A stretch of 59,204 bases of DNA from an uncultured Faecalibacterium sp. (GTDB lineage Bacteria > Bacillota > Clostridia > Oscillospirales > Ruminococcaceae). The position numbers were made by a program, and so were the translations under genes. Location of the stretch: contig CAKTCY010000005.1 in assembly GCA_934540955.1 (NCBI GenBank), positions 1 to 59,204 of the forward strand, read 5' to 3'. Position 1 is the stretch's first letter, and the number at the start of each line of letters is the position of its first letter. This document shows, piece by piece, positions 18,752-59,108 of the stretch. A model generated the notes under the pieces. The model saw nothing but the letters and a program-made list of their open reading frames with translations, searched no databases and had not been told where the DNA came from.

Positions 18752-18979
18752 GCCCTCTCGTAAAAATGCGTTTGTCGCGCTCCGCAGAGCGCGACAAACG
18801 CGAAATTATAAATAATTCTTCCGCTGATGATGGCCAGAGTGCAACAACGACGACCGCCGCCAGCGGCGGAAACAGGGAGGAGTTGTTGGGGCAGCGGCCA
18901 GCAAGACGCAAGTGCCACCCAAGGCACGATGCGGATGCTGGGTGCCGCAACCCGATAGCGGAGCACATTCTAAATCGTC
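18752..18979 (+). repeat. CGCA-hairpin element, long form (E2)
   Basis: The element starts CCCTCTCGTAAAAA. Its perfect hairpin (18768-18782 with 18787-18801) has loop CGCA, then an AT-rich stretch and the core CCGCTGATGATGGCC. About 110 further bases are shared with the inverted copy at 49265-49495, and it ends GCGGAGCACATTC then AAATCGT. It fills the space between paralogue B and spoVT. Confidence 0.85.
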
Positions 18980-39518: not shown

Positions 39519-39725
39519 CCCTTCCCGTGAAAAGTGGAACCCGAAATGCCCGCGTTTGCGTAGCAATGAAAGCCCCAGTGGGGCTTTTAAGTGGCAGAGC
39601 GGTCTGCGTAAGCAGATGGAGGGGTTTTACCCCGACAAGCTCCGCAGGCGTTTCAGGTTCCTGAATTAAAAAGAATCATTCCTCTGAATATGGCCAAAGC
39701 GCACGCGGCGGCCATTTTTAATCGT
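39519..39725 (+). repeat. CGCA-hairpin element with insert (E6)
   Basis: The copy starts CCCTTCCCGTGAAAA. Its main stem is split: GGAACCCGAAATGCC on the left and GGCGTTTCAGGTTCC on the right. About 85 extra bases lie between them, including a small AAGCCCC-GGGGCTT hairpin. The core CCTCTGAATATGGCC and partner GGCCAT (39710-39715) follow, ending AATCGT just before the mtnN ribosome site. The CGCA sequence is present on the right side. Confidence 0.75.
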
Positions 39726-49168: not shown

Positions 49169-49225
49169 GAACCCTCTCAGTCATCGCTGCGCGATGCCAG
49201 CTCCCCCGAAAGGGGGAGCTTTTTT
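49169..49225 (+). repeat. Family-B palindromic element, single end (B2)
   Basis: GAACCCTCTCAG opens the copy, followed by a CATCGC/GCGATG stem and AGCTCCCCC-GAAA-GGGGGAGCT with T6. It lies five bases after the marR stop and may act as its terminator. Confidence 0.8.
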
Positions 49226-49264
49226 CGTGCCGACCGGAAGGCGTAAACGCTCCGCCGGGAAGAT

Positions 49265-49495
49265 AACGATTTAAAATGGCTTCCGCTATCGGGTTGCGGC
49301 TCCCAGCATCCGCTTCGTGCCTTGGGCGGCACTCGCGTCTTGCTGGCCGCTGCCCCAACAACTCCTCCCTGTTTCCGCCGCTGGCGGCGGTCGTCGTCGT
49401 TGCACTCTGGCCATATTCAGCGGAAAAATTATTTTTAATTTCGGGGTTCAGAAACGCCTGCGGGCGTTTCTGAACCCCATTTTCACGGGAGGGGT
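49265..49495 (-). repeat. CGCA-hairpin element, long form, inverted (E3)
   Basis: Read on the minus strand, the element runs from CCCCTCCCGTGAAAA, through a 16-base perfect hairpin (49443-49458 with 49463-49478, loop CGCA), the AT-rich stretch and CCGCTGAATATGGCC, to the 110-base segment shared with E2, ending TTTTAAATCGTT. It faces E4 head to head with about 30 bases between them. Confidence 0.88.
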
Positions 49496-49526
49496 CGTGG
49501 AGGAAAACTGCCGGTCAACCGTTGCA

Positions 49527-49640
49527 CCCCTCCCCGTGAAAAAGTAAATCGGGAAAATCCGCAGATTTTCCCGATTTACATATAAAAATAAAATTCCGCT
49601 ATTGATGCGCAAAGCAACGCGGAGCGCATTCCCAATCGTT
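49527..49640 (+). repeat. CGCA-hairpin element, short form (E4)
   Basis: CCCCTCCCCGTGAAAA is followed by a perfect 16-base hairpin (49544-49559 with 49564-49579, loop CGCA), an AT-rich stretch, CCGCTATTG, and the second stem ATGCGC (49605-49610) with GCGCAT (49624-49629). The end CATTC, then CCAATCGTT, supplies the first bases of the eamA stop codon complement. Confidence 0.88.
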
Positions 49641-50052
49641 ACAGCACCATAAACAGCGTACCGGCGGTGATGAGGGCGCAGCCGATGAGGCTTTTGGCGG
49701 TAAAGGGCTCGTGCAGCACCACAAAGGCCAGCGCAAGGGTGATGACCACGCTCAGCTTATCAATGGGCACTACCTTGGACGCTGCGCCCACCTGCAAGGC
49801 GTGGTAGTAGCACAGCCAGCTTGCGCCGGTGGCAAGGCCGGACAGCACCAGAAACAGCCAGCTGCGGCGGGAGATATCCGCAATGCCGGTCTGAGTGCCG
49901 GTAAGGAACACCATACCCCAGCTCATCAGCAGCACCACCGCTGTGCGGATGGCGGTGGCAAGGGTGGAGTTGACCCCCTCGATGCCGATTTTCGCCAGAA
50001 TCGAGGTAAGGGCGGCAAACACCGCAGACCCCAGCGCGTAAACGAACCACAT
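49639..50052 (-). CDS. EamA/DMT-superfamily transporter (half-size)
   Basis: The 137-residue membrane protein has about five hydrophobic helices and the EamA pattern (FAALTSILAKIGIEGVNSTLAT, LSVVITLALAFVVLHEPFTAKSLIG with the usual E-P near the end, then LITAGTLFMVL). It is half of a normal ten-helix DMT exporter and would work as a dimer. Its substrate is unknown. It is flanked on both sides by inverted CGCA elements, and E4 provides its stop codon. GGAGGC lies before ATG 50052. Confidence 0.87.
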   Translation of the reverse strand: MWFVYALGSAVFAALTSILAKIGIEGVNSTLATAIRTAVVLLMSWGMVFLTGTQTGIADISRRSWLFLVLSGLATGASWLCYYHALQVGAASKVVPIDKLSVVITLALAFVVLHEPFTAKSLIGCALITAGTLFMVL

Positions 50053-50119
50053 GGCAAACGCCTCCTTTTTGCCCCAGTATACGCCTTTGTATGGCAGAAT
50101 ACAAGGCTGCGGGGAGGAG

Positions 50120-50235
50120 AACGATTTGGAATGCGCTCCGCGTTCGCTTTGCGCATAGTCAGCGGAAAGATTATTTTATATTTCGCGTTTGTCGCGCTCT
50201 GCGGAGCGCTCCAAACGCTATTTTCACGGGAGGGG
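50120..50235 (-). repeat. CGCA-hairpin element, short form, inverted (E5)
   Basis: On the minus strand: CCCCTCCCGTGAAAA, hairpin (50185-50199 with 50204-50218, loop CGCA, two mismatches), AT-rich stretch, CCGCTGACTATGCGC, then GCGCAT (50131-50136 on plus is its partner), GGAATTC-like end and AAATCGTT. Its main stem is the same sequence as that of E2. It lies 67 bases upstream of eamA. The stretch 50236-50424 holds nothing else that I identify. Confidence 0.82.
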
Positions 50236-50424
50236 TCGTAACGGCAAGCGGCAGCTACCGCGCTGGTTTCCTACGGAAACAGTCGCGCGGCGGGTAGTGT
50301 CCTCGCCCTCTCTGTTTTTTCCTTCCATCACCTGTGCGTATGGTGGTATGAAAAATTTTCGCCTTTCTGTACAAACGCACTGAAAAATTGTAGGATAAGA
50401 ATGGAAAAGACGTCACTTTCACGC

Positions 50425-58992: not shown

Positions 58993-59108
58993 CCCCTTCC
59001 CGTGAAAAGGCAATTCTGGAAAATCCGCAGATTTTCCAGAATTGCAAAATAAAAATATTTTTCCGCTGAATATGCCCAAAGTACAAGCGGAGGGCATTCA
59101 AAATCGTT
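58993..59108 (+). repeat. CGCA-hairpin element, short form (E7)
   Basis: CCCCTTCCCGTGAAAA, then a perfect 16-base hairpin (59010-59025 with 59030-59045, loop CGCA), an AT-rich stretch, CCGCTGAATATGCCC, GGGCAT (59092-59097 paired with 59072-59077) and AAAATCGTT at the end. Confidence 0.9.

What the first reader, a model, noticed from the sequence alone, without database searches (positions are those of the whole stretch)
49265..50235. Intergenic element family: constant CGCA tetraloop, variable covarying stems
Six copies (18752-18979, 39519-39725, 49265-49495, 49527-49640, 50120-50235, 58993-59108) plus one fragment (105-132) share a start (CCCCTCCCGTGAAAA), an AT-rich core with CCGCTGAATATG and an end (CATTC then AAATCGTT). 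The main hairpin has a different stem in most copies (GCGTTTGTCGCGCTC, GTAAATCGGGAAAATC, GCAATTCTGGAAAATC, or the complement of GGGGTTCAGAAACGCC), yet it is nearly always fully paired and the loop is CGCA in element orientation. A second stem covaries as ATGGCC/GGCCAT, ATGCCC/GGGCAT and ATGCGC/GCGCAT. Compensatory change at two stems argues for selection on structure (RNA, or a single-stranded DNA recognised by an enzyme such as a REP-type transposase), not simple sequence copying. I do not know a described family with this layout.
Basis: seen in the sequence. Interest (0 to 1): 0.8.

Follow-up and report, generated by a model that had tools for sequence, protein, structure and literature searches.

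The report
Exchangeable DNA hairpins dispersed in Faecalibacterium
A gut bacterium carries around a hundred or more copies of a short non-coding element whose hairpin is almost perfectly paired in full copies but differs from copy to copy, sometimes even at the same place in near-identical genomes, and in which other small elements lie nested.

Summary
The six window copies belong to a dispersed family ("E1") in part of Faecalibacterium: 8 of 31 genus genomes hold 76-120 scored copies (120 is the scoring cap), the other 23 hold 0-3. Covariation is strong: 14 of 16 P1 pairs and 4 of 6 stem-B pairs change on both sides; 0 of 500 shuffles reach the covariation score. Three findings change the interpretation. 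(1) At 21 sites shared by ~95%-identical genomes, P1 is kept (at most 3 arm positions differ; 12 sites) or largely replaced (9 sites); P1 and stem-B types are unlinked. Much apparent covariation is therefore exchange of ready-made hairpins. (2) P1 lacks a G-U excess: 5 G-U, 2 A-C in 1040 cells. (3) Of Y1, Y2, RT and TnpB, none is found in every E1-rich genome; G006 has none. Long copies carry nested independent elements: E2 in the stem-B region, E3 at the P1 tip, in either orientation. Best reading: a REP/BOX-like non-autonomous repeat kept as DNA hairpins and diversified by cassette exchange. How it moves or moved is unknown.

The parts
18752..18979 (+). E1 copy, long form (E2 in stem-B loop; stem B partly mispaired ATGGCC/GCACAT)
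   Evidence: G023 lacks E1 here
18841..18954 (+). E2, independent ~113-nt structured repeat nested in E1
39519..39725 (+). E1 copy with E3 at the P1 tip; 13 of 16 arm pairs
39551..39642 (+). E3, 92-nt independent repeat between the 5' arm and the CGCA loop of P1
49265..49495 (-). E1 copy, long form; head-to-head with the next copy
49291..49403 (-). E2 nested in the stem-B loop
49527..49640 (+). E1 copy, short form
   Evidence: 110.5 bits
50120..50235 (-). E1 copy, short form, GA/GA in P1; G023 and G027 have another P1 at this site
   Evidence: (119.2 bits)
50258..50290 (-). H0, 5' hairpin module of the 50120 copy
58993..59108 (+). E1 copy, short form
   Evidence: 121.6 bits
105..132 (+). 3' remnant of an E1 copy
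   Evidence: comparable remnants at orthologous sites

Best explanation
E1 is a non-autonomous, high-copy dispersed DNA repeat of ~115 nt (about 180 nt with the 5' hairpin H0), of the same general kind as REP/BOX-type small repeats. SHOWN: it is made of modules (lead, P1 hairpin with CGCA loop, AT-rich linker, conserved TTCCGCTGAAT, stem B, AAATCGT end). P1 and stem B stay mostly Watson-Crick paired. Where P1 has not been exchanged it changes less than its flanks; elsewhere it is replaced by a different hairpin, often one found at other sites. P1 type and stem-B type are unlinked. Other small repeats sit in its hairpins. INFERRED: structure is maintained on DNA (extruded or single-stranded hairpin), by selection and/or arm-to-arm template switching; diversity spreads by recombination among about a hundred or more copies, including flips within head-to-head pairs; the pairs decay by deletion. 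Presence or absence of E1 still distinguishes close genomes, but the enzyme that spread it is unknown and may be gone.
For: Copy number and patchiness. Covariation. 34 orthologous pairs at 21 sites: 18 pairs keep P1 (arm identity 0.993, flank 0.956), 14 are swapped (gapped arm identity 0.63, flank 0.952, 3' domain 0.856), 2 intermediate; 9 swapped sites, 12 not; in 14 unswapped first pairs 2 arm differences against 17.7 expected from the flanks. One site in the 8 E1-rich genomes: 2 empty, 6 filled with 4 different P1 stems; 3' flanks 84-96% identical to G001. P1 cluster versus stem B: mutual information not above shuffles (322 of 1000 reach it, 109 of 118 copies used); P1 versus lead linked (0 of 1000). 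68 of 118 copies share their exact hairpin with another site. G-U 5, A-C 2 of 1040 P1 cells. Convergent gene pairs 45 of 104, divergent 9 of 104, against 118 and 163 of 631 intergenic gaps.
Against: No clean target duplication or constant 5' boundary was found, so transposition is inferred, not shown. A looser hairpin set gave 29 A-C against 10 G-U in 2019 cells, and partial or degenerate copies 23 against 15, which would fit an RNA of the opposite strand. The most frequent stem keeps a tandem GA/GA, which RNA tolerates well (recalled). One covariation measure, further pair types, is not above shuffles (286 of 500 reach it), and related sequences can exceed shuffles without structure. The 34 pairs come from 21 sites in four held genomes plus the window, mostly in stretches chosen because they hold E1, and hairpin detection required all but 3 arm pairs to match, which favours paired stems. 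Independent insertion at the same site cannot be excluded for every swap.
Confidence: 0.55

Rival explanations
1. E1 encodes a structured RNA (or a 3'-UTR element) and the stems covary because the RNA fold is selected.
For: Strong covariation; purine-rich 3x3 internal loop and a constant loop; P1 nearly unchanged where not swapped; RNA fold of the 50120 copy z -3.1, with P1 in the centroid structure; on the opposite strand P1 is in the MFE fold, z -1.4, and the loop reads C(TGCG)G, which resembles a UNCG tetraloop (recalled).
Against: G-U about as rare as A-C in anchored P1 sets; E2 in the same genomes shows 29 G-U to 1 A-C in 294 cells, though only 3 to 1 over 7 distinct stem types. No Rfam match at gathering score. 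The MFE fold in element orientation lacks P1. No orientation bias: 26 '--' to 24 '++' in co-directional gene pairs. The opposite-strand loop does not vary at N as UNCG would allow (CGCA 145, CGTA 1 of 168).
Confidence: 0.2
2. No function: stems are homogenised by template switching at quasi-palindromes during replication, which mimics compensatory evolution.
For: Template switching is described as creating and maintaining hairpins (PMC8794818) and inverting spacers (PMC8604942); for both only the search listing with the start of the abstract was seen. Two of 168 loops are the reverse complement TGCG. Single-arm mismatches are rare.
Against: Loop CGCA is conserved in 145 of 168 although such correction would not protect loops; at 12 of 21 sites no more than 3 arm positions differ; larger changes are mostly whole-hairpin. 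Of 8 E2-bearing copies in the listing 4 still pair fully at stem B across the E2 insert, 4 do not.
Confidence: 0.15
3. E1 is a portable transcription terminator in the opposite orientation (hairpin followed by TTTTCAC).
For: Enriched between convergent genes; single copies lie close to stop codons on the 3' side (medians 14 nt for 30 '+-' and 6 nt for 17 '--' copies).
Against: Only four T after P1; equal numbers in both orientations in co-directional gaps (26 and 24); constant 3' domain unexplained.
Confidence: 0.15
4. E1 is a REP mobilised by a Y1 (RAYT/IS200-like) transposase.
For: Hairpin repeats, copy number, extragenic position, head-to-head pairs.
Against: Y1_Tnp found in 11 of 31 genomes, none in E1-rich G006 and G031, one partial match in G029. 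No GTAG at the hairpin foot.
Confidence: 0.07

Closest known systems
BOX elements of Streptococcus pneumoniae (PMC3049150, passages seen)
   Same: Modular small intergenic repeats with stem-loops, over-represented between convergent genes, inserting into one another, slow present-day movement
   Different: No E1/BOX sequence comparison was run; hairpin cassettes with a constant loop and exchangeable stems do not appear in the passages seen; for BOX the passages state TIR and target duplications, for E1 neither was established
REP/BIME with RAYT (PMC3733652, passages seen)
   Same: Extragenic palindromes in high copy, head-to-head dimers
   Different: No GTAG foot, no Y1 transposase found in two E1-rich genomes, several hairpins per unit; that paper's main text has 0 mentions of Faecalibacterium
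Insertion sequences that target REP loops, e.g. IS1397 (recalled, no call)
   Same: Insertion at the loop of a repeated palindrome
   Different: E3 is a ~92-105-nt element found at the P1 tip in both orientations
Rfam families
   Same: Structured, covarying
   Different: 0 window matches at gathering score; best sub-threshold hit in 49200-50330 BSR0739, 23.7 bits against 191

Membership tests
REP/RAYT repeat | GTAG (or CGTC) tetranucleotide at the foot of the palindrome | tested here: not met
   P1 is preceded by GTGAAAA in 46 of 46 aligned copies (these were picked with a pattern that allows one mismatch there); window copy 18752 has GTAAAAA
REP/RAYT repeat | cognate Y1 transposase in the genome | tested here: not met
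   no PF01797 match in E1-rich G006 and G031
MITE | terminal inverted repeats | tested here: inconclusive
   only ACGA/TCGT on single units of many but not all copies; head-to-head pairs have long ones: 44 of 168 cores are in such pairs within 400 nt
MITE | target-site duplication | tested here: inconclusive
   none visible at the cleanest empty sites; 5' ends vary
IS91/Helitron-like (HUH Y2) | Y2 transposase | tested here: not met
   PF04986 in 1 of 31 genomes, G031
TnpB/IS605 RNA | TnpB gene | tested here: not met
   PF07282 over cut-off in 0 of 31; weak sub-cut-off hits in 5, none E1-rich
Retro-element/group II-derived | reverse transcriptase | tested here: not met
   PF00078 not found in E1-rich G006, G027, G029; found in 13 of 31
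Known Rfam RNA | match at gathering score | tested here: not met
   0 in the window
BOX-like modular repeat | modules combined freely | tested here: met
   P1 and stem B unlinked, E2 and E3 optional
BOX-like modular repeat | sequence relation to boxA/B/C | not tested
   no sequence comparison made

The most novel reading that the evidence does not exclude
P1 is a physical DNA hairpin that the cell (or a resident enzyme) handles by structure, not sequence: it is exchanged between copies as a unit, and its tip is a landing site for E3, which enters between arm and loop with the same end against the loop whether the loop reads CGCA or TGCG. This would be a structure-addressed insertion and exchange system built from non-coding DNA.
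Probability: 0.28. Interest if true: 0.8.

Novelty: new variant of a known kind. Interest (0 to 1): 0.6.

Why it matters
It is a natural case where covariation, often taken as a sign of a selected RNA fold, largely reflects exchange of whole hairpins, and where the wobble test and site-by-site orthology help to separate the two. It also gives a countable model for how palindromes diversify, attract insertions and decay in a major human gut commensal, and a set of strain-discriminating loci.

Tried and rejected
Pseudoknot CCGC/GCGG crossing stem B: 4 pairs, none with a change on both sides; dropped. Known RNA: 0 Rfam matches at gathering score in the window; relaxed scans of 4 E2 loci and of window 49200-50330 gave only hits far below gathering. 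An HDV-like ribozyme for E2 was considered by eye only and dropped. Y1, RT, Y2 and TnpB as the mover. An autonomous partner bounded by E1 ends: 193 fuzzy 3'-end matches in 1.6 Mb, 21 without the upstream motif; by eye these are E1 remnants or look like chance; 9 outward pairs 0.5-3.5 kb apart were listed, their genes not examined. A general hairpin-tip preference of E2: outside E1 its flanks pair no better than controls (19 sites, mean longest stem 3.37 against 3.47 and 3.46 bp), so not general; inside E1 12 of 28 reach 6 bp against 20% of cross-paired controls, as stem B predicts. H0 detection by a 4-nt-loop rule found 21 of 123 and no CGCA loop, probably because H0 closes on a 3-nt loop. Phage carriage: 0 exact pattern hits in viral contigs; 10 partial matches in unannotated 'Bacteriophage sp.' faecal records, not pursued. 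Outside the genus: among 197 family genomes (Faecalibacterium members included; stricter filters, 18 candidates scored each) one non-genus genome matched at E 1e-5, and that sequence shows only a hairpin. Literature: five searches listed no paper on this repeat; the library lacks most subscription journals. Of papers I saw passages of two and the outline and abstract of one (PMC2267715).

Full report
WHAT IS THERE. The window holds six copies of one element, here E1, plus a 3' remnant, at the coordinates given. In element orientation: lead CCCCTCCCGTGAAAA; hairpin P1 (15-16 bp, loop CGCA); AT-rich linker; TTCCGCTGAAT; stem B (ATGNNC/GNNCAT) closed over a 3x3 purine-rich internal loop and a 2-bp GC/GC; then TYCAAATCGT. 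Many copies have a further hairpin H0 upstream, often also with CGCA at its tip, and TGCCGTTTNCCGTTACGA between H0 and the lead. Of 39 stretches found by a two-part pattern in named genomes, 30 are titled Faecalibacterium; the nine others (Chryseobacterium, Bradyrhizobium and others) were not examined.

FAMILY SIZE. In the nearest held genome the lead (at most 1 mismatch) occurs 44 times against 0 for the reversed control. A covariance model from 46 distinct copies finds matches at E 0.001 in 14 of 31 genus genomes; eight hold 76 to 120 (only 120 candidates per genome were scored, so the highest are lower bounds), the others 0-3. In the family at E 1e-5 with stricter filters, 3 of 197 genomes match, two of them Faecalibacterium; the third shows only a hairpin.

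COVARIATION. On the 46 copies 96.6% of pair cells are standard, 19 of 24 pairs have a change on both sides, and none of 500 shuffles reaches the covariation score; slid partners give 0.06-0.13 against 0.69. The number of further pair types is not above shuffles (286 of 500 reach it), and relatedness alone can beat shuffles. A crossing CCGC/GCGG stem (pseudoknot) has no change on both sides and is not supported.

BUT STEMS ARE EXCHANGED. I fetched 375-400 kb from each of G001, G006, G023 and G027, in G001, G023 and G027 in stretches chosen because they hold E1, in G006 one continuous region. In these and the window I found 168 hairpin cores, 123 with a 3' domain; 118 of 123 passed module parsing. 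Pairing copies by a shared 3' flank gives 34 pairs at 21 sites. In 18 pairs P1 is kept (arm identity 0.993, flank 0.956); in 14 it is different (arm 0.63 by gapped alignment, upstream 0.67, 3' domain 0.856) although flanks are equally alike (0.952); 2 are intermediate. By site, 9 are swapped and 12 are not (at most 3 arm positions differ). The window's 18752 and 50120 copies are among the swapped. In 14 unswapped pairs only 2 arm differences are seen where flank divergence predicts 17.7 (Poisson P 3.5e-6; the filter and the detection favour similar, paired stems). P1 type and stem-B type are unlinked (322 of 1000 shuffles reach the observed value; 109 of 118 copies used), while P1 and the adjacent lead are linked (0 of 1000). 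68 of 118 copies share their exact hairpin with a copy at another site. One site followed in the eight E1-rich genomes shows two empty, and six filled with four different P1 stems, one of the six lacking the 3' domain and one carrying E3; the 3' flanks are 84-96% identical to that of G001. At one site G027's single copy combines the 5' part of one and the 3' end of the other copy of G001's head-to-head pair, as a flip would make. Stem B also changes on both sides at a shared site with P1 unchanged (G023 L244 against G027 L220).

RNA OR DNA. If P1 were kept as RNA, G-U should exceed A-C among non-Watson-Crick cells. In 66 distinct hairpins: 1018 of 1040 Watson-Crick, 15 GA (a tandem GA/GA type), 5 G-U, 2 A-C; in the 49 distinct P1 of the top model matches 3 and 2, in partial or degenerate matches 15 and 23. 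A looser set gave 10 and 29 in 2019 cells, which, if anything, points to the other strand. As a yardstick, a stem of E2 in the same genomes shows 29 G-U to 1 A-C of 294, but mostly at one position, and 3 to 1 over 7 distinct stem types. Folding of the 50120 copy: RNA z -3.1, with P1 in the centroid but not in the MFE structure; DNA z -2.1; opposite-strand RNA z -1.4, with P1 in the MFE structure. I read P1 as maintained on DNA, without excluding opposite-strand RNA.

NESTED ELEMENTS. The long copies contain E2, an independent ~113-nt repeat also present in genomes with no E1 match (G005, G012) and in G021 with three. In the window and the four sets of stretches 20 of 24 distinct E2 copies lie in the stem-B region of E1 (counted by eye, duplicates by sequence removed); in three of the 20 the 5' strand of stem B is missing. 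At a shared site G027 has E2 and G001 has not, with identical P1 and stem B. E2 elsewhere shows no preference for hairpin tips. The 39519 copy contains E3 (~92 nt). Of 14 E3 copies in 1.6 Mb, 11 lie at the P1 tip (my reading; one of the 11 was not resolved by the script), between arm and loop, on different stems; two of these are in the opposite orientation, where the loop next to the same E3 end reads TGCG. Window 39519 and its G023 counterpart are one shared site, so the 11 are 10 sites at most. G001 has E3 where G023 has the same hairpin without it; gain or loss cannot be told.

SURROUNDINGS. With a simple coding-score gene finder, 104 of 123 full copies could be placed between two genes: 45 between convergent and 9 between divergent ones, against 118 and 163 of 631 gaps of at least 120 bp; 7 more overlapped predicted genes, 12 had no gene on one side of the stretch. 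Co-directional gaps show no orientation bias (26, 24). 44 of 168 cores are in head-to-head pairs.

MOVEMENT. Presence or absence at shared sites is seen at several sites, but boundaries on the 5' side vary and no target duplication is clear; some 'empty' sites keep both 3' ends and look like deletions. Y1 (11 of 31 genomes, none in G006 or G031), RT (13 of 31, none in G006, G027, G029), Y2 (1 of 31) and TnpB (0 of 31 over cut-off) are not shared by the eight E1-rich genomes. Other transposase families were not searched.

CONCLUSION. A high-copy family of a known kind (small modular palindromic repeats), with two features that no listed paper seemed to describe: well-paired hairpins exchanged as cassettes, and other small elements placed in its hairpins. 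'Not in print' rests only.

Noticed in passing
window 18841-18954 and 49291-49403; L287-L306: E2: ~113-nt dispersed repeat with two hairpins (by eye), covarying stem including G-U, present in genomes without E1; no Rfam match near gathering.
   Followed up: partly
window 39551-39642; L193, L205, L207: E3: ~92-105-nt repeat, mostly at E1 hairpin tips; three copies outside E1, one of which seems to run in an open frame (by eye).
   Followed up: partly
L267 near 3480, L252 near 7246, L256 near 9055: E4: ~95-nt repeat (TTGCAATTCAACTTTTTAATGCA...TTGCGATA) present in G001 and precisely absent in G023 at one site; by eye also inside the AT-rich linker of two E1 copies (L020, and a diverged one in L027).
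   Followed up: partly
flanks of many E1 copies, e.g. L255, L257: Another frequent intergenic repeat (GAGAGGGCGAG...CTCTCCC type hairpins, 'CAGTCAAAACCTGACGGTTTTGCCAGCTCCC') adjoins E1 and H0.
   Followed up: no
L003, L004, L012, L026: P1-only copies: lead and hairpin without the 3' domain.
   Followed up: no
P1 of many copies: Stems look combinatorial: outer 8 bp (GGGATAGC, GCAATGCC, GGAATACC...) combined with inner 8 bp (GGAGCGTC, GAAACGCC, GGAAAATC...); seen by eye, not tested.
   Followed up: no
MT839212.1, MT837894.1 and eight other records: Partial E1-like matches in unannotated faecal 'Bacteriophage sp.' records, possibly bacterial DNA.
   Followed up: no
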